From positions 214,261 to 278,260 of the forward strand of contig BDIU01000277.1 in the NCBI GenBank assembly GCA_002118135.1: a DNA stretch of 64,000 nucleotides. The letters run 5' to 3'. The DNA comes from Trebouxia sp. TZW2008. Its lineage: Eukaryota; Chlorophyta; Trebouxiophyceae; Trebouxiales; Trebouxiaceae. Shown in pieces: positions 4,266 to 57,000 of the stretch. Position 1 is the first letter of the stretch. Each line of letters begins with the position of its first letter. The notes below the pieces were generated by a model. It saw only the letters and a program-made list of their open reading frames with translations, was not told the origin of the DNA and ran no database searches. The translations under genes were made by a program, and so were the position numbers.

Positions 4266-7200
4266 ATGCACCTTGCAGGCGCTAGACCTCGCTCATGCCT
4301 GTCGGCATGGGCGTGCGCATTGATCTTGCTCTCACTGGTCACTGTCAGCGCAGCTGATCCTCCTCAAGGTCTGCAGAGTCAGACTGCTGGACACGGATTT
4401 GTGTCTCGTCTCAAGGTTGATAGGTCGCAGCTCGTCGTGACCTCACTGGTGTGCATCATGCAGACGAGTGTTCTAGTGACGTGAGCAAAACCGGAAGTGT
4501 GTCTGATGTGCTGCAATGGGCCAAATCGTTAGGCGCCACATGCAGTGCCCTCAGGGCTGACGACACGCTCAAAGTGAGAGGAGTGGTTGCAACTGCTGAC
4601 ATCCCAGGTGGCTCAGTCATTGCCAGCCTTCCAAGGAAAATTGTCTTGAGTGTCTCGCCTGAGCAGAAGTGCCCAATACCAGACTTAGTTCCTGAAGAAG
4701 TCTGGGGCACTACTCCCAAGTGAGATGCACTCCCTATTTGTCAATGTGCAGTCAGTAAATACACATGCGTGTCAGTGGATGCTGGGTAACGTGAGGCATG
4801 ACTGCATTAATGCACATCACAACGTTGTGATCAAGCGTTTGAGATGCAGCATGTGTCCTTTCCTGTCAGAGCATGAGGAAGCATTCACCTATGGCATGCA
4901 ACTGTACTTGCTGCACTTAATTCATTTGCAACGCAGGTACTTTCAGCTTGCCCTGCTGTTTTTGAGTGAGGTCAAGAAGGGTTCACAATCCCTGTGGTAC
5001 CCATACATCCAGAGTCTTCCGCGTGATTTTGACACCCTTGTGCATTGGAGCAATGCAGAACTGGCAGAGCTGCAGTATGACAGCACCAAGATTGAAGAAC
5101 AGTTCATACAAGAGGCAGGATCCCTGACACTTAGGATACATGCGGAAAGCTGATGAAGATACTGCATTCCTGCAGCGTGCCACCTGAAGCGGCACTTGCA
5201 GGGTCTTGCAAGTATCCTGTGACATGCTACCAGATACTGCACTTGTGCAAGACATATGTTACTTCCCTGCTTGACATCATGCATTGCCTTTTCCTTCTCT
5301 TGGATTGTTGTCCATGAAATTTACTCTACGATGTTTGCATCAAATTGATGTTGATATGCCCAACATTATGACCTGTGCCTGCCGGCAACGCAGCAGCTGA
5401 ATGAGATCAACATGATGTCAATGAGGGCAAGACTGCATTGTTGTTTTCCTTGACCCTTGCCTGCTGTCAAAGAAGCAGCTGGCTGATGTTAACGGCTTGA
5501 CAATCACAGAGAGTACATTGCAGATTGTCATGGCAACCTTGTCACAATTTGCCCACCTAGCTGTCGCATCGCGCTAGCTTGCAGGCATTCAGACAAGGCA
5601 ACAAGGCTGACCTGGTGTAATGGCTGCAGGCAAAGCAGCAGCTGGATGACATCAAGGAGCTGTATGAGAAGGTGCGCTGGGCTGGCTTGGTCACCCAGTT
5701 CAACAGCACCCTTGAGGACTTGGTCTGGGCCTCAGACATTGTGCGCAGCAGATCCTTTGCCATCACCACAACACCAGGTCAGCCTTATTGAAAACAGGGC
5801 TTTACGGCTGCTGGGCAGTTCCGGGTGCTCAACCCTCAAACCGCGCACAGCCATAGAAGATTGCCTCGACATCAATCTTGGGTTGCTGTTGTAGCTCACA
5901 GAAACTGCCTTGCACTCCACACACAAAGGCACGCATAATGTGGGCAACCCCTGGGATTCCAGGGCTCTTGTAGACCCCTGGTCGACATGCCTGATCCCTT
6001 GTCGCTGAGCGTGATAATATGGCAAGGCTGAAACTGTTGTGCCAAATCCCCCACAATGCACCAGTTTGGCTATCACTTCTTGAAAGTGTGCAGGTAGCTG
6101 TACGCACTGTCTGCTTCTGTCAGGTCACCCCAATCACCCCAGTCTTTCATGGTCAAGGCTCATGCACCGCAAACGCATTCTCGTTTTGGGAATGGTGCAG
6201 CAAGATATTGATGAAGCATGCGAGCAAAGCATCATCAGCACAGGGCCTGACGCGGTATCCAGATTGACAACAGTCAAACCTACAACTGCATCACTCGGAA
6301 TGTTGCAACCGCACGTGGTTCCAGGCAGACAGCGTTGCCACAATCGCAATCTTGTCATGCCTGCAATGCAAGACTTCTGGGCAAAATCAACTTGCAAACA
6401 ATACTTCTGACCAAATTGCTGATATTGATGGCGGTCAGATTTACATTGGCTGCCAGTAGCCGAGCTTAATACAAGTCTTTTTGACTGCAGGATGGGTAAA
6501 TGCAAAGAGCATTGGCATTACAGCCTTCATGGCTAATGTAGTGCTGCGCATACCCTTCTTCAACCAATGGCCTTTCATCCAAAGGGTATGCTGACCATCA
6601 ATCCAATTGCGCTTGCATGGCTGTTGCACTGCAGTCAGTCTGTTCAGTCCAGTCCATCAAGTTAGTAGCCTTTCATTCAAAGGGAATGCTGACAATGCTA
6701 GCCATCTGACTGTCCTTGCATGCCTATGTCACTACAGTCAGACTGTGTTGTTCATCAAATAAGGAGGCTGAGCTCCATGTCCAGGGGTTCAAAATGGCTC
6801 ACTGTGTATTTTGCGCTTGACTAGGTGTCTGGCATGGTGCAGCTGTCTATACTTGCAGGCTGACCTGCTTCTGATCTGGCTTGCATGCTGGCACTGCTTC
6901 ATGGGTAGCCGTCATGTATCTTGACATGCGTGCAATGTTTGGCTGTTTACCTGCAGGTCATCGACACCCTCAAAATATTCTGTTACATGTCTGAGGTTTC
7001 GCGCATTAGTGCAGATCATTGGCATCTGCTGCTCAGCGACCTTACAGCTTGTGTATATGCCAGCCATCTTGCTTGGCGCTCAGACAGCCAGCAATCTGGT
7101 CCAGTGTGTGTCCTGACTTGTTCAATGTTGGTGTGCAGATCGGTGAGATCTGCTGCTCATTGACCTCTGTGAGCATGGGGGGCTACCTTCTTTGGCGCCC

Positions 7201-10030
7201 AGACAGCCAGCAATCCAGTCCAATATATGCCCCTGACTTGTCAAAATGTGGATGCAGATCATTGGCATCTGCCGCTCGGTGACCTTTGTGTGTATGGGAG
7301 CCATCTTGTTTGGCGCTCAGACGGCCAGCAACCTGGACCTGACGCTGCTGCCTGTTGTTGACTCCATCAACCACAACTCTGAAGGCATGGTGAGCTCCTC
7401 TGTGCCCCCGCCTTGGTTGTAGATCTCACTGCCCTGATTTATTGATGATCTGCACTGTGGTTCAAAGCTCCATCCATAGGCCATCCATAGGCTAATTTTT
7501 CTCCTGATTGTCGCTTGAAGAGCAGCAATGAAAGGCTGCCCCTGTTGACCGAGAGTCTTGTTATGCCTCCAAATGGCAGATTTTGTCCCTTGTTGTTTCC
7601 CCTGTTTTGCAAAGCTTAGCTGTGTAAAAGCAATATTTTAAAAGGGTCTTGCTGTCTATAGCCACCATCAAGGCTCCCTGAACCTTGACTTTGAATGACA
7701 CTTTGACAAGTCATGCAGGGCTGTGTTCAGCCAGGCATCTTGGGCACCATTATCACTGTGGACGCCTGAATTGACCCTGACTGCTTGTACATGGCACTCT
7801 GCTTTCACGGGCCTCAAGATTCACAAACTTGCCACATATCAACTAGGCAGGGCTCAGTGCAGCCAGGCAGGTCACGCATGCATTGCGGTGGGAGCCTCAA
7901 CTCCAAACGTCATGTTTCACTGATGAACAGTATCACTGTGCAGGGCTCTGTTCAGCCAGGCAGGTCAGGGGCCACTATCACCGTGGATGCCTGGATCGGC
8001 CCTCATGGCGCCAACGCTGGCGAAGAGGTATGCCCATAACATCAGCGTAGCATACAAGCTTCTGTCAACACCTTCAATCAATGCAACTGAGGGCAGCTTG
8101 CTATTTTAATTAGTGTGAGCCGGCTCTGCCTTCAGCATGGCTGTTTGATGCAAATGGCAACAGTGCTGAAATTAGAAAAGAAACCTCCTGTTGTTTCAAC
8201 GCAGTGTGAATCTACATGTCTTGTGTTGCACTCAATAGTCAGCTTGCTTTGTTGACTTCTGACTAGGTGTATTGCCCATGCTGCAACAGTATGATTGCAT
8301 GTTTGTTGCCTGAGGAGAGCAAAGATGACGCTCTACAATGCTGTGCAAGAAAAGATCATCAGCAATCAGCTGCAAAGCAGTGTTGGTGCTGTTACTGAGC
8401 GGCTTTATACAATGCGCAGGTGACAGCTGCCTATGCAACTGCTTCCAATGAGATGCTGCTTCAGCATTATGGTTTTGTGGACATGCAAAACATCAACAAT
8501 GAGTACACAGCGGACATCCTTGATTTCATTGAGCAGAATGTGATTGACCAGCCAAATGAAGAACAGCTGCAAGCTGTACAGGCTGACGCTGGCTTGACAA
8601 AAGCTCTGACGCAGGTAATTCAATTCTCTCCATATGCTGCTGCAAGTGCTGCATCATATGTTCATTATTTCATTACAAGTGTTTGCCAGGCAGGCTTTGG
8701 CACCTGCCTGGGGAGACAGGACTTGACCCACACACACCTAGCATATGCGGGAATGTGCAATGAATATGATTACTATAATGATATGGCACCCAGCGACTTG
8801 GCGTGTACAGGCACAGTCAGCTGCCTCCATGCAAGTCTGTCAGAAGCTGTTTTGCTGCATCATGCTTTCATGTGCTGTGATTTTGCTTGCACCTGTTTCG
8901 CTCACCTGGAGTTGAAGTGCACACAATGCTGCCTGTGTCACCCTATCAAAAGTTTGAGTCGCAATAGAAAGTTGCTGTTCTGCTGGACAGATTTGACAGT
9001 TCAGTGACAGCAAATATGGCAGACATGATGCCACAGATGTCACAGAGTGCTCAAAATGAGCTACACAATCTTTGGTCTAACCACAGCGGATGTCTTGCAG
9101 GCCAAGCTGACAAGCAAGGGGTGGTCTACAGAGACCACACAGGCTCTAAGGTTCCTCTTGGCAAGCAGGGACGAAGCAAGCGCAGCGCAGTCATGGAGTC
9201 CAGCGCGATGGGTGACTCACGTAGTACGGCATCAGCAGCTGCCTGCTGCTGGCTATGCCTTTGGTCAGCCACAGTCATCTGCAACAGAAACCAAGGTTGA
9301 TCAGGTGAGCTTGAATTGCGCTGTTTGCACTTGTTTGTGTGCTCTCACTCAAACGCTCTCAGCACTGCCAGCAGCATCAATAGCTGCCTGCCGCTGGCTA
9401 TGGGTTTGCTGAGCCACAGTCATCTGTGACCGACACTAAGGTTGTTCAAGTCAGCTTTGTCCACTCTGTTCTCATACTGTTCTGTGCGGGGACTCAATTA
9501 TTCCTCATTACAAGCAGCAGCAGCAGCGTGAGTACAGCAACAGCAGCTGCCAGCTATGCGTTTGGGTAACCACAGTCATCTGTGACAGAGACCAAGGGTC
9601 TCACCAAGGGCAAAGCTAAATGGGCTTGTGTTCATAGCAGTGCATGCTTTGCACAGGCATGGCATCCTTCATTGTAAGGACTCTAGCATGCTTTTCTGCT
9701 GCATGCTGGTGTCATTCCTGGCTGACCAGCCCAGATGTTGCACCTACAGCGTGAGTGCACTTCATCACATGTGCAAACTCACATTGTTTGCATTATGATT
9801 GCCTGTGGCGCTACTGAAGTCAGACTTGCCTCTGACCGCAGGTCCTGTCAAGCCTATGCCAAGACATCAGCAAGAGCAAACCCACCAGCCTTGAAGCAGA
9901 TGCAGCAGCCCTGTTGCGTTTGGAATCGGTTGCTGATTCTGGGTCACAGAGGCATAAATTGGCATTGCAATTTCGTGTTGGATACAAGCAGTTGCTGCAG
10001 CAATGCTATCAGCAGCACAGCAGAGCTTGA
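4266..10030 (+). CDS. SET-domain protein with Rubisco LSMT-like substrate-binding region
   Basis: Predicted protein lysine methyltransferase of the RLSMT/SETD3 class. Nine exons join in phase to 481 residues: 4266-4368, 4464-4719, 4937-5114, 5630-5777, 7301-7389, 7944-8027, 8420-8614, 9101-9304 and 9842-10030. The first exon ends a hydrophobic leader (WACALILLSLVTVSA), so a signal peptide is likely. SET signatures follow: LWYPYIQSLPRDFDT, VRSRSF, the Asn-His loop LLPVVDSINHN, and SNEMLLQHYGFVD. The C-terminal helical part (KGWSTETTQALRFLL, then PTSLEADAAALL) matches the RLSMT substrate-binding fold. Exon 3 seems to end at a GC donor (5115), and the acceptor of exon 5 (7301) is the least certain junction. 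Substrate unknown. Introns hold decayed copies of exons 4, 5, 6 and 8. Confidence 0.85.
5383..5495 (+). repeat. Two decayed copies of the SET exon-4 acceptor boundary
   Basis: Segments near 5389 and 5465 resemble the start of exon 4 at 5630: the GCAAAGCAGCAGCTGGATG context is recognisable in both, with several substitutions. They lie upstream of the genuine exon and cover only its 5' part. Confidence 0.6.
7019..7300 (+). repeat. Tandem copies of the SET exon-5 acceptor boundary
   Basis: Two earlier units (about 7019-7125 and 7138-7240) resemble the segment 7255-7345 that contains the start of exon 5. Shared landmarks are CATTGGCATCTGC, then TTGGCGCTCAGACAGCCAGCAA. Only the intron end and the first part of the exon are copied. 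Unit length is about 120 bp. Confidence 0.8.
7713..7943 (+). repeat. Two decayed copies of the SET exon-6 acceptor boundary
   Basis: GGGCTGTGTTCAGCCAGGCA at about 7715 and GGGCTCAGTGCAGCCAGGCA at about 7850 mirror the genuine start of exon 6 at 7944. The first copy also keeps CATTATCACTGTGGACGCCTG but then runs into an in-frame stop. Copies lie only upstream and cover only the 5' part of the exon. Confidence 0.8.
9363..9605 (+). repeat. Two decayed copies of the SET exon-8 donor boundary
   Basis: Segments 9376-9450 and 9525-9600 copy the last part of exon 8 (AGCCACAGTCATCTG and the following CAAGG context), including remnants of the donor. They lie downstream of the genuine exon end at 9304. 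Confidence 0.8.
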
Positions 10031-12171: not shown

Positions 12172-15100
12172 CTAGTACCCAGCCTTGTTGGCGCATGACA
12201 GCTGTCTGATGATGTATACAGTGTCCATATTGATGTTCTCATTGTCCAAGTTTCTGTTCCATTGCCACAAGGCATGGGTGGTGTTCTGGAAAGTCAAAAC
12301 ACCATGGCCGTAAGCAGGCTCACGGAATGCTGACCATGCAGGCTGAGATGTGGCACAGAACTGGCCATTGTACACAAAAGTGGGGCAGTACCCTCCTGGC
12401 TGGTAGGCTGGCACTGTCTTGTTGGGGGTTGGGCACTGTCCAGGAGAGTCAGCAAATGTCTTGTCTGCAGCAGGCAGCTTTACTGTCAGCATAGCAGTAG
12501 TCTGACACCATCAAACCATCAACTGACAGCAGGAATTTTACAGTCAATATTGTTGGGTCTAACAGTGCAGAACACATTGACAAAATGTACAACATGAATA
12601 TGGTGCTCAATATCAGTAGCCATGCGTCAAAGCTGTGCTCAGAAGACAAGCAAGTTGATGTGCACATTACAACAGTCATTGGTTAAGGTCAATGCACTCA
12701 ACGGTGCTAGCTGATAGACTGACCACACAGGCCTTTGAGGCTCTGCACATGTAAGTGCAAGCAACTTCCAGCAATGCAATAGCGGCGCCTGCCGCAGGAC
12801 GTGACTGCTGTATATGTACAGCTCAACTGGCCTGACGTGGCTCAAAAGTAGTAGCTGCTGTAAGGGTAGGCAAGTGCTGTTGTGTCTGAATGTACTTCAC
12901 AGGCATGTGAACCAATGCACAGATGACAGTGCATGCAGGAGATCCTGTTTGATGCAGAACTCACATAGACCCTCAATGTTGCCTCCATCGCCCATGGTTA
13001 TGTGCACAGCTCCACACTGGTCCACATTGAAGTTCTGCACAATAGAAGTAAGCAGTTGACAGTGAGTCCTTCAAGTCAACTTGATGCCCTGAAAGTTTCT
13101 GAAAGGGTGCAAGGGCTACTCATCCTGAGGTCACATGTCACAGCTGCATCACTGTTATTGAGCTTGTACAAATCCACAAGGAGATCTTGAACTACATGTG
13201 TGAAGTGCAGGCAATTGCTCAAGCAGCAGAGAGACTAATATCAGACTCTCTCTGTGACAGACAACTCCTCAGATGCAAGCTTGAGTGTTGAAAGACGTTG
13301 CACTGCTTGTGCTTGAGACAGTAGAGATCTGTAACGACCAACATATGCATGCACTGAGACTGTTGCAGCAGAGAAGTCAGGTCACTGCAACAGGACTGAG
13401 CAAGGAGCGTACATAGACTGGGTTGCTCCTTTCATACTCATGGCAATGTCCATTCAGCACAATGTCCACACCAGCCTGGTACAGGATGTTTTCCATGGCC
13501 AATCTCATGCACTCATTCTCCTTGTAGTGTGAGGTGTCTGCAGCCACAGCACACACGCTTGGACATGACGTGAACCTTACAAAGACAATGCCATTCACGT
13601 TATAATGTGAACTGTCTGCAGCCACAATTACGCAGAAATGAAAGCAGGCACAGCTACGTAACAGGCTCAGCATGAGCAGCCATAAAAGAGAAATAGCGCA
13701 AGCAGCTGTGTAAGGGGGAGCGCACCCAAGCTGGGACATCAGTCACATACAGGGCAACACAGGCGACAATGTTTTGGTTGCAGGGTTGATGACAGCGGCA
13801 CTTGGCATAATGCAGTGCACATGCTAGCATGTTCTCATCAGCTTGCTTTTGAAGTAGCTCATGCACTTGTGAACGTCAGATGTCAGGGCTTGGAGATAGT
13901 GGTCTTGACATGTAAGCACAGAGCAGCAATGCCAGGTCTGCAGTGTATTAGAGGCTGGGCTGAGGAAGCTTACATGATGAGTACCATGGTGCATGGAAAG
14001 TGGCCACAAGCCAGGGTGTGGTCTTGCGGTTGAATCTGCACAACACATCAAACATGTTTTGGTTCTGCTGTAAAGCATACATACATATGTCATTGTCAAG
14101 ACAGGAAAGTTTTGCAGTTGATTCTGCATTGCACATGTGACGCATACGGACCCTCTGTATCAAGTGACCATTGTCTTCATGATCGGACTGTGATGCAGCA
14201 AGTGCAAGCCAAGTTGTCAGCGGTGGTCATGGTCAGCAGACCTATAACTTCTTCACTGTCACAAAGAAAAAGCGATGCAGCTCTGCCTAATGCTTCACTG
14301 CAGGCATTGCACTTGTGTATGCATTGATAAGCAACAATCAGCTGTAGAGACTTACGTAGCAAGGTCATGCACCAGCCAGTTGTACGGGTCACTGCCCACA
14401 GCAAAGTCAGCGTAGTTGGACAGATGAATGATGTGAGCTGGTTCCACATTAGTAGAAGACCACAAGGAGCTGTCAGAGCCACAATGATGCAATTGAATTG
14501 GCAAGCACAAGCTGTAGAGACTTACGTAGCAAGGTCATGCACCAGCCAGTTATACTGGTCGCTGCCCACAGCAAAGTCAGCGTAATTGGAAAGGTAGATA
14601 ATGTGAGCTGGTCCCACATTGACAGAGTACCACAGGGGGCTGTCAGAGCCACTTTGGCCTGCCAGGATGTTAGTGGGGTTGCGGGAAACATAGCTCTGGA
14701 ACTGCTGGTTGTTGTTGAGGCCTGAAGCATAGGTGGCTAGGTACTGAGGCTCCAACTCGTGGTTGCCGTGGTTAGGCAGCAAAGGAATCCTGCAACAGGA
14801 ACAGCAATTGATGTGAGAGTCAGCAGCACAGAGCATCATAAATGGCTGTTAAAGCAAGTGTAATCCGCCAAGATGTCAGGTTGCGAGAAATAAAGCTCTG
14901 GAACTGCTGGTTGTTGTTGAGGCCTAAAATGTATGTCGCTAGGTACTGAGGCTCAAGCTCATGGTTGCCATGGTTGGGCAGCAATGGGAATCCTGCAGCA
15001 TCGTGACTTCTCAACATCTGTGGTATCTGCTTGCGGGAAGCAGTTTCTTCCCGGTGAATGAGCCTATGCACAAGCCAAAGCACAACCCAGGCCAGCTTGC

Positions 15101-22705: not shown

Positions 22706-22749
22706 GCCCTGGCCAAGGGGGCAGGCATTAACCGTGGTCTTCGACAACC
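22706..22749. promoter_or_regulatory. Very short divergent spacer between two start codons
   Basis: Only 44 bp separate the proposed ATG of the glycosyltransferase (22705, -) from the upstream ATG of the PHS1-like gene (22750, +). Using the alternative ATGs (22612 and 22873) the gap is about 260 bp. Either way the two genes would share a bidirectional promoter. No motif is recognised. Confidence 0.4.
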
Positions 22750-25700: not shown

Positions 25701-27625
25701 GGCCACACCAGGAGCGCTGCCTAATCCTCAAGTTCCTGCACACCAGGCTGTTGACTCAGTCAGAGCAATTTGCCAATGAGCTGACGCGCCACCTTGACAT
25801 CTGTGCGCCCAACTGCCGCATCTTAAGGCAAAAGGTGAGGCCTCAATTCTTCCCTGTGCTGTGTTCATGAATGGGGACCCCTTGCAATGCTTTTACATAA
25901 AAACCTCAAAGGTTCACAAAAAAGAACTGTATGGAGACAAATCTGACATCTGTGCGCCCAACTGCTGACATCCTAACGCAAAAGGTGAGACCCACATATT
26001 ACTATGGAATGCAATTGTGAACACAAAGCCCTTGCAAGGTGACTGGAGACAGCATGACATCTGTGCACCCAACTGCCGCATCTTAAAGCAAAAGGTGAGA
26101 CCCGGATGTTCCTTTTTGCTGCATTTTTGAAAAAGGGATCCCTTGCAATTCTACTACGTGTAAAATCCTAAGGTTCACGAGAAAGATTATGAAGAATGTA
26201 AGAATGTATGGAGACACCTTGACATCTGTGCGCCCAACTGCGGCACCCTATGGCAAGAAATGAGACCCTGATAAGTCTTTGAGCTGCATGTACAAACTGG
26301 GACCTTTCAAACCTGAGTAGTGATACCTTGAAGTCTACCTGCACAACCTTATGTACAGGCCAGCACAGCAGCAGAGTGAAGAGACTGTCATGCATCAGCA
26401 CTGTTGATGGGCAAGCGGGGTGCTGAGGTGATTGTGAAGCGTACAAGAATAAAAAGACGTGGCTTTAGTTGAACAGGGCAGCACAGCAGCAGAGTGAAAG
26501 GACTGCCATTCAGCAGCACTGCTCATAGGCAAGCGGGGTGCTGAGGCGGTCGTGAAGTGCAGAAGAATTGCAGGACGTGGCTTTTGCTGTACAGGGTAGC
26601 ACAGCAGCGGGGTGGAAAGACTGTCATGCATCAGCACTGTTGACAGGCAAGCAGGGTGCTGAGATTGTTGTTAAGTGCAGAAGAATGACAAGACGTGGCT
26701 TTTGTTGTACAGAGCAGCACAGCAGCGGAGTGGAAAACTGTGATGCATCAGCACTGTTGATAGGCAGGGGTGCCGAAACGATTGATGAAAGCAGAAACGC
26801 TACAAGTCGTAAATTCATTGTACAGTACTGCTTGTTGGCGAACAGGGTGCTAAGATAGTTTGTAGCAGCAGAAAGGTCTTGAATGTGTGATGCAGGGCAG
26901 CACAGCAGCAGAGTGGAAAGACTGCCATGCCTCAGCACTTTTGATAGGCAAGCGGGGTGCTGAAATGGCAGAGCAGATGCAGCGCAGCACCTGTCTGCTG
27001 GTCATGGAATATGTTCCTGGTACCGCACTCTTCACAGCCAGCAAGCCTTTTGGTGGTGACAAGCTGGAACAAACTGCTGCAGATCTTGGCAGGTGTGAAT
27101 TTGCTGCTGCTGTTGTCAACCTTATCAATCTTGCTGCTGCTGGTGCTGCTGCTGCTGATGTCTCTGTTTGTGCTGCTGTTGCTGCTGCTGTCGTAGTTGA
27201 CTGTGTTCCTGGCACCGCACTTTTCGCAGCCAGCAAGCCGTTTGATGCTGACGAGCTGGAACAAACTGCCGCAGATCTTGGCAGGTTGACATCTGTTGCA
27301 TTTGGTGCTGCTATTCATAATACCATTGCTGGTGCTGCTGGTGCTGCTGCTGTTGCTGCTGCTGGCAGACTTGATGGTGTCAGAGTTTCTGCTACTGCTA
27401 CTGCTGCTACTGTATGTTCCTGTTATTGCACTGTTTGCACTGCTGCCTTTGCCATTGTCACAGTCATTGCTGCTGACGTTGTATCACTGCCAGCAGGCTG
27501 TTTGGTGTTGACAAGCTGGAACAAATCGCTGCTGACCTTGGATCTGTTGCCTTTGCTGCTGCCTTCGCTGTTGTCAGGGTCATTGCTGCTGACGCTGCTG
27601 CTGTTGTTGTTACTGCTGCTGCTAA

Positions 27626-27657
<32 letters not shown>

Positions 27658-43400: not shown

Positions 43401-46400
43401 TGTGGACAGCTTTTGCACTGTCAGATAGCCGCAGGCGATTGCTGACTACCACCTATCGGGTCACTAGCTGTTGCCACAACAAGACTGCTGTTTGTGACTC
43501 AGTCAGCCGCAATGACAAAGCAGCTGCCACTGCTTGTGTGGCAACTTTGTATGACATCATGCAGGTGCTGCAGCAATGACGCACCTGCTGTAGGAGATGA
43601 TGTAGATCTCATCCCAGAGTCTACGCTGCGGTCTGCTTCTCAGCACAGCAGCCAATGCTTCTACAGTATCTGACTGTGCACTTGCCCTTTGAGCATTGGC
43701 ATCTTCCTGGGCTTGCCTCTCCTTTTGGACCAACTGAACAGCCTGCAAGTAACACACAGGAGTCAAAGCTGGAGTATCTGCACTGACATGCTATTGTAAC
43801 GTTTCCTGTGGGTTGCAACTGGCATGAAGCAAATGCTGGCATATCTGGTTGCCAGCTTATCTCAAGGCGCACAGGTATGCATGAGCATATTGCTTTTGCA
43901 TGCAGGTGGCTAAAACTCTCAGGGCTGACTCAAGCTTTGAACTAAGCAGAAGAAGTCCAAGATCGCAGCTTGAGTTTGCCACAAACATGTCGTCAGGGCT
44001 CACAGCAGCATGATCAAAACTTTTATATGTGACCGTGACTCGCCTAGCTAAATCTGTATTATGCATGCCAAACTCATGACCTTCAGCAATGCTCATGGCG
44101 TGCATGCAAGTGCCTCTACAGCAGCCAACTACAACTTGCAATGCAGCTGCATCATGCGCGATTGGTTACCTGGAATATGGTGAAGCTAGAGGGCACCAGT
44201 TTGCCTGCCAGGTAGAAGCGCAACTTGGACTGCCCTGGTCTGCTGGTGTCAGTTGCTTGAGCATAGCTGCTGGTCGGCGCTGCTGGCGCCGCTGTGCTTG
44301 CTGCTGACGCTCTGCAGAGCATCATGACATGACTTGTCAACAATGCCAGTCGTGCATGCAGGCAGCTTGTCATGGGAACTTTTGAACTCAAAAACCTGGT
44401 CCAAGAGCCACAGAAACAGCGGAGGTCACACAACTTGGGCAAGCTGGGCACTCGTTTTAGCAGCAGCAGCAGCTACTGCAGAACATCATGCCAACCATCG
44501 CTGAAATTGACAGTGTTGCATGCTGACAGCCTGTCACAACAAATGTCGCATGCACTGTGAGTAGGGTCCCCTGACACGGGTGCAGATGAAAGTTTGCAGT
44601 GATCACCTGGATTGGGCAAGCTGAGCAGTTGCTGTAGCAGCACCTGCTGCAGCAGAGGCAGCAATAGCGCTTGCGACGGCAGAAGTAGTCACATTGCTCC
44701 CATGGACATACTGGGCTAGGCCCCACCTGCAGGGCAGGCAAGGTGGGCAGGTGTTGAGCGAGTTGGTCATTGACGAGGCATTTGACTTGCATAGGCATAA
44801 GTAAACACAATGGCCTTTGACAAGGCCCTTGCTTATGACTGTTTCATGCACACATGCCATGACCATGCTGATGCATGAGTACTTGGGAACTAAGCTATGC
44901 AAGAGCTTTGCCCACTGCATGCAAAATACAGCGCTGTAAGTGGTTCTGGTGTGACCTAGTCATGCTGACAAGCAGCCTTGAGCGTGGACAAGCAGTGATT
45001 GACCTAGTCGTGTGAGCGCTCTGCTGAAGTTTGAGCTCAGCAAGAGTGGTTTGCAGCCACACACAGCATGCTTGCATAGTTATAGCGATTTGGTACAAAC
45101 CTGGTTCACCCTTGAGCAATTGACCTCCATGTATGAATTTCAACAAAGGCTGTACCAACTGTTGGTCAGCATGCTTGAACAGTGTCACTGACTTCTGTCT
45201 TGCTATCATGTTCATGCCAACAGCACTCTTGCTGATACTGTGATGACTCTCAGACAGACCTGGTTGAGCTTGGCGCTGTATCCCTGCCAGAGGTGCCAGC
45301 AGCAGGCGCAGTTTCTGTGCTGACATGCACATCATGAACTGCAGGCTGCTGCATTGCTAGCTCCTCCTCGTCATCTTCAGGGTCTATCTCATCGTCAATG
45401 TCGTCATCATCTTGTTCCTCCATGTGATCAACACTGTCCATAGATGCACCCAAGGCTGCTTCCAAGGCCTCTGTTGCAGAGACTGGTGCAACAGCAGCCT
45501 CTTCCTGTGAGCATGCCAGCGCAACAATTCAGTCTTGAGGAACAGACAACTTTGTATCAGGACCTCACCTCCCTCCATGATCAACATGAGTGGTTTAGGA
45601 CAGCGCAGGATTGATCTGATTGGAGACAATTGGAAGTTCCAGTACATATAGCTGGGCCTGCTGAGCCTGTCTAGCGCACGTGTAGATTGAATGATGGAGT
45701 GAATGAGGAATGGCACTTTTCAATGTCTTGACCAGCTGACAAACGTCTGCACAACTTTGAGAAGGTAAAGGCAATCAAAGGCGAAGCTAAACGTCTTGTC
45801 CAGAGCCTCAAGCAATAGAATCATATGCAGCAGCTGAAGCCAAGGTGCATGGTAGTACATGGGCCTACTGCTGAAACCTAAATGTATGCACTGGGATTGT
45901 GCTGCTGGTGTAGCTGTTTCAGAAGTGGACTACAAAGTCTGTCTCTGATGTGCAATGCAGGATGGACATTTCTGCTGTGCTGCTTGTATCAAGCACTTGA
46001 CCATAGCTTTAAGTAATAGGCATTCTGCACAGCATGCTGCTGACGCAGGGACCTGGAGTTGAAGGACATCCGCAAAACAAGTACATGACCTGGAGATAGA
46101 CATGTGCCACAGCTCGCACAGAAGGTGAGGGGCTTGCTGTTGTACCATGTCATAGTCGGGACTGGAGCCTTCTGCCATATCTTGGTCCATCACAGCCTCT
46201 TCATCTTCTTCCATGACGCTGCCAGGAGCAGTGTCTGCCAGCTCAGCAGCCGCTCGCGCGGCTGCTGCACGAGTCATCCGCTGATTGGCAGTGGTTTTGC
46301 CTTTGGGGATGGTCTGTGACTTACTCTTAGCAGGAGGGTTGCGGCTGCTTGCCCTGGTTGTAGGCTTTGCAGTTGCTGTGCTGGCAGCATTGCTGCTGCC

Positions 46401-49400
46401 GCCACCTCCATGTGCATCTGAGGCAGCTGCTGCAGCAGGGGCAGCCTCTGCTGGTTGAGCAGCAACATTTGTGGCTGCTGAAGCACTGCCTGCTCTGGGT
46501 GCTGCTGGTTGTGACTGCATTACACATCAGGACTGACAAGGTGTAGCAGTTGTCAGCACTTGGACATTCATACCAGGTACCATTGGTATACCAGGCTGTT
46601 AGTGGCTGGAAGTGGTACCCTTGCTCAAGCAGAACGTTCCAGTCTTACGGCAATGGACTGAGTAAGGCGAATCATCAAGAGAGACCAGACCTACCGTATT
46701 GGCAGCCGGCGCAGCTGAAGGTGGCGGCGACGGGGAGCTTCGGTACACCTTGCTCCAAAGGAAGTCCTCCACCGCGGTCATGCTTGCTAATGGCTCTATG
46801 AGCACAACGTTGGTGGCATAGTCCTTGAGCTGCTTCTCGTGGTCTGCTCTGGCGAGACGCAACTTGAACGGCTGCGTGAGGGCGGCAAGACCGGAGCTGA
46901 GGCTGCTGCCTTCGCCGGCGTTGAAGCTGCGGTAGCCTCGCGCAGCACCGTACGAATGGCCTGAGGGAAACCGAAAGCCGCTTGACCGGGGAGGTGCTGC
47001 AGGCTCTGAAACGGCAAAGGTCTCGACTGATGCAAGCACACTTTGAAGCTTGGTGACCTGCAACGTTGACAACATTATCTGAAACAGCCATCAAAATGCG
47101 CCAAATTGACAGGCAAGACAGCAGGCAGTCATGACATGGCATGCAGTGAACTGCAACGGGGCCTGAGGCTGCATCAGGTCATGCTGTGACTGGCAAACAG
47201 GCAGGCAATAATAGTGCCTGGCAACAGCATGACAGCAAACAAGAAACGTACCAGAGACTGCATAGGTGCTGCTCCACCCTTGCCCTGTGCAATAGCTGCT
47301 TCCCAGAAGGCATGAAGCCGCTGCAGCAGCTTCTGGCTGTCCACATGCACCTTTGCCTTGCCTTTCATTAGGTCAGCGCCAGCCAAAAAGTCTCTAAGCT
47401 GATGCACAGCGCCACTGGTTAGAAACTCAAAGGTGCTGATGTTGGCTGACTCTTGATCTTGCAGCAGGCTGAGTAGCTGTTGCACTTTGCCTGAAATTGA
47501 CAGGTCCTCACAGATGCTGCTCAGCTGCCGCATGCCGTCTGTCTGAGCGCCTGAAGAACTGCTTGCACTGTTGAAGTACTGTTTCAAGAAGGACTGCGCT
47601 CGCTGAGCTGTTGCTGCCTGAAGGCTTGGTGTGGCACTGGGCTTATGGACTGGAGAGGCAGCTTCTTTCTCTGGGGTGGGTGCATCACTAGCTGCCTTTG
47701 ACTCTTTGTTTGCCTTAGTCTCCTCTTTGTCTTTGTTCTGCAACCCATGTACAAAGGTACTGACACAGGACAATCATGCAGCCCGTATGTGTTGGCTAAT
47801 GTTTGTAGAGGCAAGTTGTATGACCATATATGCCTAGCGAGGAGCAGCTTGCAGTGGAGTCATCAAAGTTGGCATGGAGCTGCTACAATGCCATGAGCCC
47901 ACAAGCTGGCCGTCAGCAAATCAAGCGGCACAACTGGCGCGTTGCTCGTCTTGATGAGCAAACTGGTGCAACAGAGTCAGCCGAAGTTCTGTAGGCACTA
48001 AGGAGTTCAACTACAGCACCATCTGAGAAGGTCAATTAGTAGAGCAGCTGCAAAGGTTAGCTAAGATAGCAGCTGACCTTGAGACGCTGGCTAGCCCTCT
48101 TGGAAGCCTTGGTCTTGGCCTTGTCCTCAACAGTAGTCTGAGGCAATGTGGCTGCAGTGGCTGCCAGCTGCTCAACAGCATGCATCACTCCCTCTTTCAG
48201 GAAGTACTTGCTGAAGATGTCTGGTAGCTTGCGCATCAGGATCTCTGCCAGCTGCAGCGCCTTGGCGACAATGCTGCTGTCCTTTTGTGTCAGCAGGCCA
48301 GCAATGAAGCTGGAGATGGGCAAGTCACCAAGGGCATCGCCCAGTGCCTTTGGCTCACTGAAGTGAAGAATCTTGGTGACAGTGGCTAGGCATTGCGTGC
48401 GCACCTACATGGTGGACAACCACAAGCTCAGTTACAGCCAACAGCCTATCATGCTGATGCAGCCAGATGCAGCATGCCTAACTATTGGAGTCAGAACACA
48501 GGGTCAAATTAACTCGTCAGAAATGAGGAAATCTGGGTTTTTATGCAGCCTGTAAAGGGGCATTCCTGATACCTGTTGAGAAAAGCAACATGTTGCTGCC
48601 CCTGCACATGACAGTGCAGTGTATGGCACAGTAGAGTGCAGTGTTTGGCTGTAGTAGTAGAGCAGTCAGGCTGCACCTTGTCAAGCACTGTGCTGCCATA
48701 GACTTGCAGCAACAGCGGCAGCAGGTCTGATGTGAACTTCTGCAAGGTCTCAGGATGCTGTTGTAAGAAGCGCGTGCGCAAACACTCTTCCCTCTCAGCT
48801 GTGTCTCCTGATACAGCTGCTCCTTTGCAATCTGCATATTCTATCGGCTTGTTTGCACAGATGTCTGGGTGGTTGCTACAGAAGAGTGAACTGAGCACGA
48901 GTTTAAAACTGCAGTATGTGGACATGTTGATGCAGCAAGCACTCAGCGCTGCATTGGCATACCATGCAGGTCCAGATGATGGCATCACTAGAACACAATA
49001 TGAGCATGCGCATATGTGTAGAAAGCTAGTCTGTGAGCAATGCATGCCCATGTTATTAAGTCACTTGTCACTTCAGTCATTGCTTGTGAGGCAACAGTAT
49101 CTTGAAGCGTTGTCACATGTCACATGAACAGCGACGCCCTGTGTTCATGAACACCGGCGCCCTTGACTCAACACAAATGGAAGAGCCTGCTGATGACATG
49201 TCATGAACAATCCTCTAGCTATTGTCATCTCTGATATGCCTTGAGAGAAACATCTCTGGTATGCCTCATGAGAACAAGTGGAGAACTTCCTATACTCTTT
49301 CATCTCGTTGTAAAAAGGGATACATTTGTCTAGGGAGATCTGCAAGATGACTCACCAGATGGTATTTGGGGTGCAGGGGGGAGGCCAGCCAGCATGACAG

Positions 49401-52400
49401 TTGCAGCATCTGGCAGGGGAGGTAGCAGCTCACAGGCTAGGGTCACAACCTCATGCAACTGATCTGAGGAGCGCAGCACTGAGGCTGCACTGGTTGTTGC
49501 GGTATTGAACAGGGTTGAGCTGCAAGGTCACAGACAGGGTCAGCATGAGGACATGGCTCATTTGATCTTGCACCCAGTGTACACAATCATCTGGCACACA
49601 GAGAAATGCTTTGCCAACATCAGGAGGCATAACAAGGCTGAAGCCTAGCTGATCGCACTGCACCATGTGGCTGAGTCCTATTTGGCAGTGCTAGCACCAC
49701 AGCAGAATAACTATGACGAAATGCGTGCAGAGGAGACAGAAGTGGCACAACACCAAGTTGACAGCTTGAGGCTGTGAAAAGCTGAAAGGCAGGCTAAAGG
49801 TGTGAACAGATAAACAGCAACAGGGCATGCAGTGGCGACTGTGTGCAATGCTTACCTGCGTAACAAGTTGTGCAGCGTCCCTGAGATATCTGACCGTAAC
49901 AGGTTCTCAGCCACTGTGTGCGAGCCAGTCACACAAGTTGACAGCAACTTAATCAGGCCATAGTACGTGGACAATGACAGCTGTGATGTCATGCTGCCTG
50001 TGTCTGACACTGAGATCTGCATGCAGCAAAACAAGCTTCCCTAGCATATCCCAAACAGCCAATGCAGATAACTGAAACGAGCACAAATGCTCACAGAGTT
50101 GCGATTTTCTGTGGTTTGACTTGCAAGAGCAGTAAAAGGTTGTGCATGCAGACAGCAGCGGACACATGCTACAAGTTTGCCATGACCATTGCACAGCAGA
50201 TGCTGCAGCAAGCAAGCCATGGCTGCCACTACAAGTCACAGCAAAGAAGGCAATCTTACCAGTTGTACAGCATTGCTGATCAGCCCGAATTCACACAGCA
50301 TATTCAGGTTGTCTGGCCGGTGAGCAAAAGCTTCAGCTATGCGGGACAATGCCAGGCACGCATTGTCTACTACTTTGGCGTCCTACACAACAAAAGCACA
50401 AACACGTCACAGTCTCAGACAAGAGGTGCAGCACTTGATTGGCATAGCCTTCATCAGAGCCGCATGCGATTTACACTGGATCAATAAACACAACAAAGAA
50501 GCAAGTACAGACAATGCATCCACGCACAGTTGCATCTCAGAACACTATATGTTTATGTGGGATGTCTGTAATGACCTGACTTGCTTGATGAAACAGATTG
50601 AAGCCATTACCTGATACTGCAACAGGTTTGTGAGAATGGGAATTGCACTGGCAACTGCCTCAGTGTTTTCTGAAGTGACAGATCGGCACATGTTAGCAGC
50701 TGTGGCCACTGCTACTCGCTGCACTCCCGTTTGGAAGAAGTCTAGATAGCTCAGAGAAGCCAGCAAACCCCCATGTCTCAGACAAGCAGCTGGATGTTCA
50801 TGAGAGATCTTCTCTAAAGCCTGCACATGCCATCAATAGGCCGTCAGGCTCAGCTAAGATCAGACGTACACAATATATTGTAGTATGCATTGGATCGTCA
50901 GACTTGCTTTCAGAACCCTTTGGCCCAGATGTGCTTGTTCTTGACACTGTCTGTGTGGCCTGCTGCTGGGTCTCTAAGACGGGAAAACAATGTAATGTAA
51001 CGTGATGTATGGGAGCAGACTGGATGGCAAATTTGACATGCATGCACAGACTATGGTCTGACAAGATTGCAGGAAAGATGATCTGGGTGTGTGCAGTCAG
51101 TCAACAGATTTTGATCATCTTGCAATTGAGGCAGACAAAGCTATATTTAGAATTGTGTTGGCACAATGTACCGGGGCACGTGACCTCAACACTGCACAGG
51201 CGATCTTGCTATCAGCAACGGCCAGCGTTCATGACATGCTTCCAGCATTGATGCAGTATCAGCAGCAGCTGCTTGCCTGAAGTGACTGTTCCGCCAGGTC
51301 TATGTACTCAATGGTCATCAGCCTAGCACACAGAGCTGGCACAGCTCCATTCCTGACTATTGACGAGCAGATGCTGGGAAGGACATCAGCCAGTAATGTC
51401 AAGTTGCGTGCTGCCAGCAGCATCAGCTGAGAATTGTGCTCAGCATTGAGCAAGGAAATCTGCACAGTGACACCCAGCGTCAGCCGTGCTGCATGCTTGC
51501 AAGAGATTGTGCATGCTGCAGAAGAAGCCGATACTCCATAGCAGGCACAAGCGATTTGTCGCTATGTTGTAAGCATGCAGCTGTTGCCACCGTTTGGGTC
51601 CCAATGGTGCATTCAGGGACATCAAGCTGAATGTCATGAACAGTGGTCACAACAATCTGTCTCTTGCTGACAACATGGTCACAAGATGAAACGATGCAGC
51701 CAAGCTGGAATTCTTGCAATTCTGAGCTGCAGCAAGGACTGTTGCTCACCAACTGTGGCACCAGCTGCTCCAGAGGCAGCACTGTCAAGGCCTCCTCACT
51801 GGACATGGACATCAGCTCTGTGAGTTCATTCAGCGCTGCTTCCTGAACCATCTCGTCCTCCTCTTTGAGGGAGGCCATGATTCCCTGCATTCCATTGGGG
51901 GCTCAGGCTACAAGGTTTCACAGCAGTTGGACCAAAGCCAATGCTCACATGCCATCATAATGTCTTGCAGGTTTACACAGAACAAAGCTGCTCAGAGGCA
52001 GCAATGCCTTTCAGATGCAGTGGTGCAATTCTAGCGTGATTTTGAGTTGCTGGCAACAACAGTGGGATGGTGGTGACAGGCAGCAATTCTGGCACACAGG
52101 CCAGGTTGACTGCGCCGACCATGACATACAATGACAAGATGAAATGGCAAAAAGTACAGCAGACCCTTTTGGCAACTGCTTGCCTGTATGTCACACATCA
52201 ATGCTGCAGCACACTTACTGAAGATCACAGCATGGCGATGCACCAAATTCAAATCAGCCTACCTTGAGCTTGGAGCTAGACAGAGGCCCGGCCAAGGAAT
52301 CTCCAAATCTACCAAACAGGCCTCCCAATCTGCATGGATCAATCATGCAATGCATCAGCATATTCGGCAATATTGATTCGCGCCGTGTTCAGTTGACATG

Positions 52401-52947
52401 GCATATGCTGTGGGGAGACTGCATATTGGTAGCAAAACAGCTTACCCTGCTGCCTGAGCTGTCCCAAACAGCTCAGCTGCTCTCCTCTCCTGCAAGTAGA
52501 ACGCATTCAGCCATCTATAGCTTTGGATCGATATTGCCTGAGCTCGCGACATGCAACATTCGAGTTGACCTGCTCCAATGCTGCTCGCTCCTGAGCTTCC
52601 GCCATTTCCCTGCGAGCTCCCATCTCTCGCTCAAGCTCAGCTACAGTCCTGCTCCTCTGCGCCGCTCTCTCCGATTGCGGTGTCGACGCTTCTGCAGCTA
52701 GAGAAGCCGCTGGCTCCTGAACTGATTCCTGCTGAGGTTTTGGGATAGCCGGCTGAGGTGCTTGAACGAGACCTATGTCCTGGTCAGCGCCTGCTCCGGA
52801 TGCTGATGCGTCAGCTTTTGCTTTACTGACGAGATTTGCTTTGCCTTTCCCCTCAGCCTGTGCTCGGCGTACTCTCTTGCTACGGGGCTCAGGAGGAAGG
52901 GATTCAGACGCAGCAGCCTCTTTGCGCTTAGATCTCCTTGTTTCCAT
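37475..52947 (-). CDS. UPL3: HECT E3 ubiquitin ligase, UPL3/UPL4 class, complete
   Basis: Transfers ubiquitin through a HECT-domain thioester. Twenty-six exons, every junction in phase, 1915 residues (plant UPL3 is about 1890): 52947-52570, 52489-52446, 52329-52263, 51884-51750, 51459-51277, 50820-50611, 50382-50260, 50016-49856, 49519-49356, 48831-48677, 48404-48078, 47737-47252, 47057-46695, 46514-46146, 45504-45260, 44726-44607, 44311-44170, 43742-43585, 43092-42877, 42514-42370, 41832-41599, 40582-40360, 39904-39634, 38999-38688, 38311-38036 and 37715-37475. The N-terminus is basic ([10 protein letters not shown]). Armadillo-like repeats follow ([34 protein letters not shown]). The middle is Ala/Ser-rich and acidic (residues 930-1140). 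The HECT domain has [19 protein letters not shown] and the catalytic Cys at about 1882 ([11 protein letters not shown]). Intron 5 uses a GC donor (51276). Two MITEs lie in its introns. Confidence 0.96.
39448..39624. mobile_element. MITE copy B
   Basis: 177 bp flanked by TA on both sides (39446-39447 and 39625-39626). The left end is CAGTAACCTCTTTTTGTACA and the right end is the complement of CAGTGAATTCTTTTTGGAAC. It lies in a UPL3 intron whose donor is at 39633, so the element begins about 7 bp into the intron. Confidence 0.9.
40025..40095. repeat. Dispersed repeat pair, copy 1
   Basis: CTGCTGAGCCTGTCTAGCAC, followed by ACGTCTTGAATGAATGA. Copy 2 is at 45636-45712. Both copies lie in UPL3 introns. 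Confidence 0.8.
43192..43365. mobile_element. MITE copy C
   Basis: 174 bp flanked by TA on both sides. The left end is CAGTAACTTCTCTATGTAAG and the right end is the complement of CACTGACCTCTCTCTGTAAC. It is the best preserved of the four and lies in the UPL3 intron between exons 18 and 19. Confidence 0.93.
45636..45712. repeat. Dispersed repeat pair, copy 2
   Basis: CTGCTGAGCCTGTCTAGCGC, followed by ACGTGTAGATTGAATGATGG, matching 40025-40095. It lies in a UPL3 intron. Confidence 0.8.
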
Positions 52948-54071: not shown

Positions 54072-57000
54072 TTACCATGACTGAGGAGGCAGTGAAGGGG
54101 CAGGACGCTGTACTACATTGCCAGAGCGATGCGATTTGGCAGCCCGAATGACCCTCAAGGCCTCTGCAGCAGCTTGTCTTGGCCCAGGGTCTTGAGGTGA
54201 GCTAGCAGCTTGGTGCACAGCTGCATGTGCAAACACGTGTGTCAACATTGCAGCAGCTATATTTTGGCTCGTGATTTTGATGTGGACAAGCAATTTGGCT
54301 TACAGTCGCATGTGCATGCACGGATGTTGACACTGCATCAGCTGCACTTGGCCCATGATCTTGACTAGACTGAGCACTGGCGGCTGTCAGCTGCATGAAC
54401 GTGTATGTGTTTTAGCATTGCAATGACTGCACTGGATCTATAATGCTGATGTGAGCAAGCAGCTTGGTTCACAGCTGCATTTGCAGACATGTGTCAGTAC
54501 TGCAGCAGCTGCCCTTTGGCCCATGATCTTGACTTGACTGAGCAGCATGGCCGTCAGCTGCATAATGTGCACGCGTTTCAGCCTTGCGATGAATGCACTG
54601 GATACATAATGTTGATTTGAGCGTGCAGCTTGGTTCACAGCTGCATGTGCTAACATGCGTGGTTAACACTGCAGTCCGAGTATTTTGGCACACACTTCCT
54701 GGCAAGCTCAAGCTCATTCTTGTTGCTGAAGAGTAAGATGATGCAGGACGAGAAGGTTGCAAACAGGGCTGCGTCAGAATTTCATGCGGCACAAGAGATT
54801 CAGTAGCAGCATGGCACAGCAAAGATAGCAATGACCATGCCAAACTCACAGTCAGCAGCGCACTGCTGACACACAGAGTGGACAATGCACCTGAACTGTT
54901 CACACCAGAGCTGTGGCGACTGCTTTGGAAGCTGAACTCGCTGTGATGGCTGCTACTGCTTGTTGTCACACCAGTCATGGACACATTGTGTTCCGCAGTA
55001 TAGGCCTGATGCACGGCATGAATGGCAAAGGGCTGTCTCTGCTCTGCCCCATACTGCCTTGCCTCATGGCCCTGCCCCTGCTGCTTGATATGGCCCTGCC
55101 CTTGCCGCATCATGTGGCCCAGCCCTTGCCATGCTTGTTCAAGTTGTGGATCAATCGTGTAGCCTGGCTGATGCCCTGCCTGGTCAGGTTGTGTATCAAC
55201 CCTATAGCCTGGCTGCTGCCCTGTCCCATAGCCGTGACCCTGCTGCATGCTATAGCCCTGACTCTGCCCTGCCTGATCAGCTTGAGGATTAGCCCGATAA
55301 TCTTCCTGCCACAATGCCCTAGCGCCTTGATTCTGCCCTGACCCATAGCCCTGCATGTGACCGTCTGCATAGTTTCGTCCTTGCCCTACCCCATAGTCCT
55401 GCCCCTGCCCTGTCCAAAGCAATTGCTGTTCATGCTGCTGCTGCTGATGCTGTTGCCAGTGCTGGGCAGCAGGCATGCCAACAGGCTCGCTGCTGTTTTG
55501 CCACCTGTACTCGCCAAACTGATTGCTTGTGACTCGACCAGAAGCATCCTGAGCATGCTGGGCGCCATACTGTGATGCCAACTGTGACACCTGCTTGAGC
55601 TGTGGAGTCTGTACTGAGACTGAAGAAGCGGTGAATGCCGCTTGATATGCTACTGCCTGAACAGCCTGCTGGGGCCTCTGAAATGTGACCTTAAGCTGGC
55701 TGTGCTGCTGATCTGCAAATCTCTGTGGAGTAAAAGGTTGGACAGCCCAATGCCCATCAGGCAATGCGGGCTGAGGACTTGCAAGCGATGCCTCTGAGTC
55801 TTGCACCTGAAGCATCTGAGGAAGCAGAACAGGCTGGTGACCAGCTGCTGCATCTGGCTGTCTCTCAACATCTGCACTGGGTATCTGTGGGTGCTGGACC
55901 ACAGAAGGGAAGGCCTGTGTGTGGATTGTCGCTGCATGTGGCTGGTTTCTTGGATGTACCAATGGGCTGTGCATAAGATCAGATGCTGCTGGCAGCTGAT
56001 GCTGTGCATACTGACTTCTCCCCTCAACTGAATGCTGTGCTGCTTGTAAAGGAGGCTGTAGCTGCGCCTTTGCATCCAGATATTCATGCGAGTCAACGGA
56101 TGGCAAGAGATGCTGGTGAACAGGGACACCAGCATTGGCAGCAGTAGACTGTTGAGCTGGAATCAGCTGTGACGGCATGGGTGGCTGCACTGGCAGGGAA
56201 TCACGCGGAGGGGCAACAGGCAGCATGTCTTGATGCTCTGCGTGATGACGGCTTGCAACAGCTGCATGTTGGGCTGCTATGAGTTTGGGCTGGGATGGGT
56301 CACTACTGTCATCAGGCAGAAGCTTGGCAGGCAACGAATCTGTTGGCAGAAAAGTGGGGTCAGTGCTGACGTCCTGCAGGCACAGCAATACTGATGTCAA
56401 GCCAGTCAACGATGGTGTGCGACCAAGGTACCGGGTTTGCAGCCATTAAAACAGCGATGGACAATACAGACTATGCATATCAGACCCATGTTTGGCAAAG
56501 GGGGTTTTCACGTCAGGCATTTCATTGACAAACAAATCAGTTTGATTCATGGAGATCTTGAAGTACTACTGGCTTTGCAGCCTTGACAAAGGCAGCTTGA
56601 GCAGCGCTGGAGTGAGCCAGACAGGCAACGGCATGTTAGGTAATGTTTGTAATGACCCTCATATGCAGAGAACGCTTTTGGCTCCAAACAGGCTCAATTA
56701 GTCTGAGTCTGAACACCACAAACATTGTGTCACAGTAGCAAAGCACCAATGTCAAGGCTGAGGTTTGCAATGTAACCACCATGCCCTTGTTGGACAATAT
56801 CATACCTGAGACAGTATGTCAAAGTTGGTGAAGACCTGAACAAAGGGCTCATCTGGCCATGTCTTCTTAGCCTTCTTGAGCTGCTTCAGAGACACAGATG
56901 CATCCGCACGTGCTTGCTTGGCTGCCGCAGTCCTGTTGCTTTGCGCTGTAGATCTTGCTGAGCCTGCTTGCTTGCCTGGAGCAATCCTGCTGTTTCGTGT

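What the first reader, a model, noticed from the sequence alone, without database searches (positions are those of the whole stretch)
4266..54680. Introns grow by one-sided partial copies of their flanking exons
In four unrelated genes on both strands, introns contain tandem copies of exon edges. Copies before an exon always carry the acceptor plus the first part of that exon; copies after it always carry the last part plus the donor. Acceptor-side clusters: SET exons 4, 5, 6; phosphatase exons 5, 6, 8; PHS1 exons 6, 7, 8, 9, 12, 15; SAM last exon. Donor-side clusters: SET exon 8; phosphatase exon 6; PHS1 exons 5, 6, 7, 9. I saw no exception. A tandem duplication across a splice junction leaves the protein unchanged only if splicing keeps the exon-proximal site, so selection would leave exactly this pattern. 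The number of events per gene looks far beyond background and suggests a duplication process focused on, or tolerated only at, splice junctions.
Basis: partly seen in the sequence, partly recalled or inferred. Interest (0 to 1): 0.88.

Follow-up and report, generated by a model that had tools for sequence, protein, structure and literature searches.

The report
Tandem duplications across splice junctions
In a lichen alga (Trebouxia), short stretches of DNA that straddle exon-intron borders have repeatedly been copied in tandem, leaving decaying fragments of exon edges inside introns while the protein seems unchanged; it is a natural experiment on how cells choose between neighbouring splice sites.

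Summary
Confirmed: introns hold direct, tandem, partial copies of the adjoining exon edge. Copies 5' of an exon carry acceptor plus exon start; copies 3' carry exon end plus donor. In 264 kb from four contigs: 5' edge upstream 24/262, 3' edge downstream 11/255, wrong quadrants 3/262 and 2/255, inverted 0/1034. Proteins of other Trebouxia verify SET, phosphatase and PHS1 exons; kinase and kinesin genes elsewhere show it too.

Likely mechanism: ordinary DNA tandem duplication (offset quartiles 112-174 bp) across a junction; the exon-proximal site stays in use, the intronic copy decays. Evidence: mismatch by codon position near 1:1:2; copy-only residue changes 97, exon-only 10; AG/GT loss at the neutral rate; junction offsets free of frame.

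A process focused on junctions is not shown: the excess over chance is 1.4- to 3.7-fold by model. One-sidedness itself follows from geometry plus an intact protein. No pair outside contig C30 reaches 95% identity (0/84), so none is fresh. One HECT gene (23 exons) is nearly free of copies. No RNA data.

The parts
5630..5777 (+). SET-gene exon; acceptor-side copy at 5379-5410
   Evidence: 28/32 identity; exon by P0172/P0173
6491..6585 (+). SET-gene exon; donor-side copy at 6668-6691 (repeat 6570-6643 / 6668-6746)
   Evidence: 22/24 identity
7010..7213 (+). acceptor-side copies of SET exon 7258-7389 (array, unit about 119-124)
7714..7778 (+). acceptor-side copy of SET exon 7944-8027
   Evidence: 52/65
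9374..9457 (+). donor-side copy of SET exon 9101-9304; stop in the aligned frame of the copy
   Evidence: 55/68
15543..15613 (-). acceptor-side copy of phosphatase exon 15367-15481
   Evidence: 48/59
14828..15000 (-). acceptor-side copy of phosphatase exon 14526-14789
   Evidence: 79% over 177 columns
14526..14789 (-). phosphatase exon with copies on both sides
   Evidence: 88% to Trebouxia sp. C0005 protein P0001
14340..14482 (-). donor-side copy of phosphatase exon 14526-14789, donor GTAAGT kept
   Evidence: 88% over 143
13592..13623 (-). acceptor-side copy of phosphatase exon 13413-13537
   Evidence: 26/32
24763..25069 (+). three donor-side copies of PHS1 exon 24494-24676
25303..25539 (+). 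acceptor-side copies of PHS1 exon 25638-25834
26047..26102 (+). donor-side copy of PHS1 exon 25638-25834
   Evidence: 45/48
26352..26801 (+). four acceptor-side copies of the start of PHS1 exon 26896-27092 (unit 118), stops in two of them
27655..27759 (+). donor-side copy of PHS1 exon 26896-27092 (others near 27228-27288 and 27501-27542)
   Evidence: 54/58
27979..28030 (+). acceptor-side copy of PHS1 exon 28131-28242
   Evidence: 47/52
28837..28879 (+). acceptor-side copy of PHS1 exon 28987-29100
   Evidence: 37/43
29147..29762 (+). donor-side copies of PHS1 exon 28987-29100 at 29147-29246, 29369-29431, 29710-29762
33193..33213 (+). acceptor-side copy of PHS1 exon 33334-33505
   Evidence: 20/21
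34523..34662 (+). acceptor-side copy of PHS1 exon 34743-34945; stop in the copy
   Evidence: 78% over 140
54249..54674 (-). acceptor-side copies of the SAM-gene exon 54076-54220 (offsets 84, 169, 254, 420)
37475..52933 (-). HECT (UPL-like) gene, 23 exons tested, nearly free of copies: internal contrast
   Evidence: 1 expected-type hit on 44 exon sides

Best explanation
Short DNA segments duplicate in tandem in this Trebouxia genome (junction-type offsets: median 154 bp, quartiles 112-174, 37 events). When the segment spans a splice junction, the result is intron-with-acceptor plus exon start, twice in a row, or exon end plus donor-with-intron, twice in a row. Only the copy joined to the rest of the exon can give the old mRNA, so splicing keeps the exon-proximal site and the other copy is left in a longer intron, where it decays as near-neutral DNA. 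Repetition gives arrays. Shown: direct tandem copies, intron flank copied along in clear cases, decay of copies without codon constraint, constraint on the exon, no frame constraint on offset, presence on many contigs. Inferred: that RNA splicing uses the proximal site (no RNA data), and that splicing recognises the exon as a unit.
For: Sidedness and orientation: 24/262 and 11/255 against 3/262 and 2/255, inverted 0/1034; at score 36, direct 34/340 and 15/338, inverted, reversed and shuffled 0 (at score 30 one inverted and one shuffled hit). Copied intron flank: in the kinase gene on C73, 60 nt of intron are copied with the exon start; pooled, 15 of 33 intron parts have z over 2 against other introns. 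Dead copy, constrained exon: mismatch 0.097, 0.122, 0.232 at codon positions 1, 2, 3 in 33 of 49 hits (16 hits starting more than 3 nt from the edge dropped); copy-only amino-acid changes 97, exon-only changes 10, over 491 compared sites of 16 of the 23 copies seen (copies of one exon share exon sites). Splice sites: AG kept 16/23, GT kept 10/14, within neutral expectation (37 of 58 hits). Frame: junction offsets mod 3 = 13/15/9, coding-only 11/11 multiples of 3, nine of these from one block. Intron growth: median 472 (n=32) vs 341 nt (n=348), p = 0.003 (longer introns also have more room for a match). Lineage-recent: where exon and relative differ, the copy agrees with this exon 43 times, with the relative 10, neither 19.
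Against: No transcript data. 18 of 33 intron flanks have z of 2 or less, as expected for old neutral DNA but not proof. Kept donor copies score lower (mean 3.55) than neutral decay predicts (4.66 to 3.94), a hint that spare donors may be weakened; kept acceptor copies score higher (5.82 vs 5.35 to 4.26). The gene finder sometimes calls a copy an exon (PHS1; C157 and C207), so counts are approximate. Acceptor-side copies outnumber donor-side ones (34 vs 15; 24 vs 11), which simple geometry does not predict. No fresh duplication was seen: 0 of 84 pairs outside C30 reach 95% identity.
Confidence: 0.86

Rival explanations
1. Duplication is truly focused on splice junctions (a mutational hotspot, for example tied to splicing-coupled chromatin or nucleosome-sized replication units), beyond what a uniform rate plus tolerance gives.
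For: 37 junction against 17 intron-only events, 35 against 13 as families; a uniform tandem-duplication model with decay predicts ratios of 0.59 to 1.60 over twelve settings, observed 2.2-2.7. With the measured indel rate (0.07) and old-skewed ages the ratio is 0.92-1.23, p 0.0007 to 0.055.
Against: The expected ratio depends on age distribution and indel rate: in the three most old-skewed settings p is 0.014 to 0.33. A random-shift control gave 26 exon-intron pairs against 35 observed (C30 included). Exon calls are partly uncertain.
Confidence: 0.22
2. The copies are functional: mutually exclusive or alternative exons, or maintained decoy splice sites that regulate splicing.
For: About 70% of copies keep AG or GT, some with strong sites.
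Against: Copies are mostly partial, 4 stops occur in 16 copies, they evolve without codon constraint, and AG/GT are lost at the neutral rate.
Confidence: 0.04
3. The copies come from a mobile element, introner-like insertion or RNA-mediated copying.
For: Introns grow in many genes at once.
Against: Each copy matches its neighbouring exon in direct orientation, clear cases include genomic intron flank, and no inverted edge copy was found in 1034 tests.
Confidence: 0.02
4. Assembly artefact or unmerged alleles.
For: Tandem repeats are a known source of assembly error.
Against: No pair outside C30 reaches 95% identity, some copies carry stops, and the pattern occurs on many contigs.
Confidence: 0.01

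Closest known systems
[quoted passage not shown] passages read)
   Different: There one event made a new intron through an activated cryptic donor. Here many events lengthen existing introns, also on the donor side, and the old exon is kept.
[quoted passage not shown] not held; known here from citations and from recall)
   Same: Duplication of segments inside genes as a common process.
   Different: As cited, it concerns common internal duplications and segments containing entire introns; whether it counted partial exon-edge copies left inside introns could not be checked.
Tandem exon duplication giving mutually exclusive exons (recalled)
   Same: Local direct copies of exon sequence.
   Different: Here copies are mostly partial, one-sided and not under coding constraint.
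Pseudoexons or decoy splice sites (recalled; search listing)
   Same: Intronic sequences with plausible splice sites that seem not to be used.
   Different: Here they arise as copies of the neighbouring junction, in large numbers.

Membership tests
Tandem segmental duplication across an intron-exon boundary | Direct orientation, adjacent copies | tested here: met
   inverted 0/1034
Tandem segmental duplication across an intron-exon boundary | Duplicated unit includes both intron and exon sequence | tested here: met
   (C73 60 nt of intron, C130 about 16 nt), z over 2 in 15 of 33; arrays. Not shown for each case
Intron gain by tandem duplication | A new intron is created | tested here: not met
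   In PHS1, phosphatase and SET the relatives' proteins match the proximal exon copy and the spare copies lie in introns between exons; relatives' gene structures were not seen
Mutually exclusive exons | Both copies under coding constraint | tested here: not met
   copy-only changes 97, exon-only changes 10
Mutually exclusive exons | Both copies spliced into mRNA | not testable with these tools
   No RNA data
Introner elements | Similar sequence dispersed among unrelated introns | tested here: inconclusive
   Copies match the adjoining exon; direct hits over 5 kb apart are 9, 2, 0, 0 and 27 in the five blocks, but the whole genome was not scanned

The most novel reading that the evidence does not exclude
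Trebouxia carries, by extrapolation, thousands of natural splice-site competitions in which identical sites were placed side by side by duplication and the exon-proximal one kept winning, on both exon ends. This implies that this green alga recognises exons as units (exon definition), although green algae with introns of similar length are described as using intron definition, and it shows intron lengthening by junction-spanning duplication as a main route of intron growth, possibly with a mutational focus at junctions.
Probability: 0.3. Interest if true: 0.78.

Novelty: new variant of a known kind. Interest (0 to 1): 0.58.

Why it matters
To my knowledge (recall) how introns gain length without transposons is poorly documented, and few systems offer many natural tests of splice-site choice between near-identical sites. 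If RNA data confirm it, these loci would test exon against intron definition in green algae, measure how fast decoy splice sites die, and warn annotators: gene finders can call the copies exons, as mine did in PHS1.

Tried and rejected
Alternative exons and functional decoys were rejected on codon-position rates, the relative-rate count and AG/GT loss. A profile-overlap search for copies in other genes worked for kinases and kinesins: of 12 regions fetched (3 from kinases, 7 from kinesins, 2 from TCP1), 7 showed exon-edge repeats (C73, C130, two on C79, C157, C275, C207) and 5 did not (C273, C33, C87, C193, C144). The lists were read by eye for overlapping ranges, the kinesin list is cut off, and weaker overlaps were not followed up. 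Contig C30 (14.5 kb, many inverted repeats) was left out of later counts; it was, where it gave no exon-edge hit. Loci L001-L008 were not used. Attempts to show a junction hotspot gave no firm result. No comparison with the DNA of another alga was possible.

Papers: PMC4974935, PMC3488318, PMC11523091, PMC6652019, PMC12712428 and PMC4378016 were seen as passages only; others as search listings. That a genome-wide report of this pattern was not found rests only on the listings in an open-licence library; it may exist elsewhere.
Full report
What the window is. The window is G000:C263:214261-278260 of a 68.5 Mb assembly in 527 contigs. The C0004 models ACH3X1_001295, 001296 and 001299 are numbered close together and are listed with one contig length, as expected if gene order is shared.

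How exons were fixed. A hidden Markov gene finder with splice-site and codon models was seeded from nine in-frame window segments and trained on 278 kb: the window, four further blocks of about 50 kb and one 14.5-kb contig. It gives 380 introns, median 345 nt, and exons of median 146 nt. SET, phosphatase and PHS1 exons were then checked with tblastn of relatives' proteins.

Observation. Aligning each exon with its flanking introns gives, at score 36, 34 of 340 upstream and 15 of 338 downstream direct matches, and none for inverted, reversed or shuffled introns; at score 30, 37 and 21, with one inverted and one shuffled hit. With exon edges as separate queries (exons of at least 110 nt, C30 left out): 5' edge upstream 24/262, 3' edge downstream 11/255, 3' edge upstream 3/262, 5' edge downstream 2/255, inverted 0/1034, Fisher p = 1e-5. 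The five wrong-quadrant hits concern four predicted exons: one (27497-27663) is probably a mis-called copy, since the relative's protein matches there only in a short piece already covered by exon 26896-27092; three lie in repeat arrays on C10 and were not resolved. In the window there are 13 acceptor-side and 8 donor-side cases. The relative's protein makes the pattern plain: the last residues (198-226 region) of the P0121 stretch coded by exon 24494-24676 occur three more times downstream; residues 289-320 start exon 26896-27092 and occur four more times upstream.

Not only here. A Pfam search of the genome found overlapping profile ranges in neighbouring matches of kinase and kinesin genes. 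Of 12 regions fetched, 7 show direct repeats of an exon edge on the expected side: C73 and C130 (kinase), two places on C79, C157, C275 and C207 (kinesin). Some further repeats in these short regions are cut by the region's end or unresolved. C73 has acceptor-side copies with 60 nt of intron copied; C207 has four donor-side copies. These loci were chosen because of overlap, so they show spread, not rate. In the four blocks outside the window 22 families with both exonic and intronic copies lie in 200 kb; the window has 13 in 64 kb, so it is richer than average. Scaled up, some thousands of families may exist in the genome, an extrapolation from 0.4% of it.

What decays. Comparing exon and copy, mismatches are 0.097, 0.122 and 0.232 at codon positions 1, 2 and 3 (33 of 49 hits). 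A dead copy beside a constrained exon predicts about 1:1:2. At compared residues where exon and relative agree (419 of 491), the copy differs at 97; the exon alone differs from both at 10 (16 of 23 copies; copies of one exon share exon sites, and copies were found by their protein likeness). So the exon-proximal copy is the coding one, which stands in for RNA data only in part. The copies keep AG in 16 of 23 and GT in 10 of 14 cases; decay at 0.11-0.15 per site predicts 0.72-0.79. Kept acceptors score as well as or better than neutral decay predicts (5.82 vs 5.35-4.26), kept donors worse (3.55 vs 4.66-3.94), so weakening of spare donors is possible; numbers are small. The offset is a multiple of 3 in all 11 coding-only repeats (nine from one block) and in 13 of 37 junction repeats, as expected if junction copies are not translated. 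Where this exon differs from the relative, the copy agrees with this exon 43 times, with the relative 10 times, with neither 19 times: most of these duplications appear younger than the split from the relatives.

Mechanism. Direct orientation, adjacency, arrays and the copied intron flank mean DNA-level tandem duplication. Which mutational process makes them (slippage, unequal exchange, end joining) is open. Sidedness needs no special process: a duplicated acceptor segment always leaves the spare copy upstream, a donor segment downstream, provided the whole exon is still made. No pair outside C30 reaches 95% identity (0 of 84); fresh repeats may be collapsed in the assembly, lost by recombination, or the process may have slowed.

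Is the junction a hotspot? Junction events outnumber intron-only ones 37 to 17, families 35 to 13. Junction offsets are also longer (median 154 vs 94), as longer units cross junctions more often. Simulated uniform duplication with neutral decay predicts ratios of 0.59 to 1.60 over twelve settings. Settings near the observed median identity of junction events (78%) are those skewed to old ages, with ratios of 0.92 to 1.60 and p from 0.0007 to 0.33; with the measured indel rate (0.07) they are 0.92 and 1.23, p 0.0007 to 0.055. The excess is suggestive, not established.

Splicing inference. After duplication the two sites are identical, and on the donor side the spare site lies nearer the acceptor, on the acceptor side nearer the donor. 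Pairing across the shorter intron would choose the spare. That such loci are common and spare sites largely persist suggests that splice sites are paired across the exon. Volvox and Chlamydomonas, with introns averaging 491 and 373 bp, were described as using intron definition (PMC4378016, passages). This step is inference; RNA data are needed, and exonic enhancers could have the same effect.

Uneven spread. The HECT gene (37475-52933, 23 exons) has one expected-type copy on 44 exon sides; SET, phosphatase, PHS1 and SAM together 20 on 62. Why is unknown.

Noticed in passing
window 37475-52933: A 23-exon HECT gene is almost free of exon-edge copies while its neighbours are full of them.
   Followed up: partly
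window 30348-31701: Long intron holds a tandem array (unit about 263 bp) that overlaps no called exon.
   Followed up: no
whole sample: Acceptor-side copies are about twice as common as donor-side ones (34 vs 15); geometry predicts equality.
   Followed up: no
whole sample, offsets: Repeat offsets seem to cluster near 80-120 and 143-175 bp; the second is nucleosome-sized. Judged by eye, not tested.
   Followed up: no
whole sample outside C30: No local direct repeat pair of 84 reaches 95% identity: the duplications are all old or fresh ones are missing from the assembly.
   Followed up: partly
G000:C237 block, 38.5-45 kb of the block: Coding tandem repeats with offsets such as 96, 153 and 174 bp, all multiples of three.
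   Followed up: no
window 26887-28290: Repeat-rich stretch with TGC runs and open reading frames on both strands that look like genes but are partly copies of PHS1 exon edges.
   Followed up: partly
G000:C30 (14.5 kb): Small contig with 47 local inverted repeats, unlike the rest.
   Followed up: no
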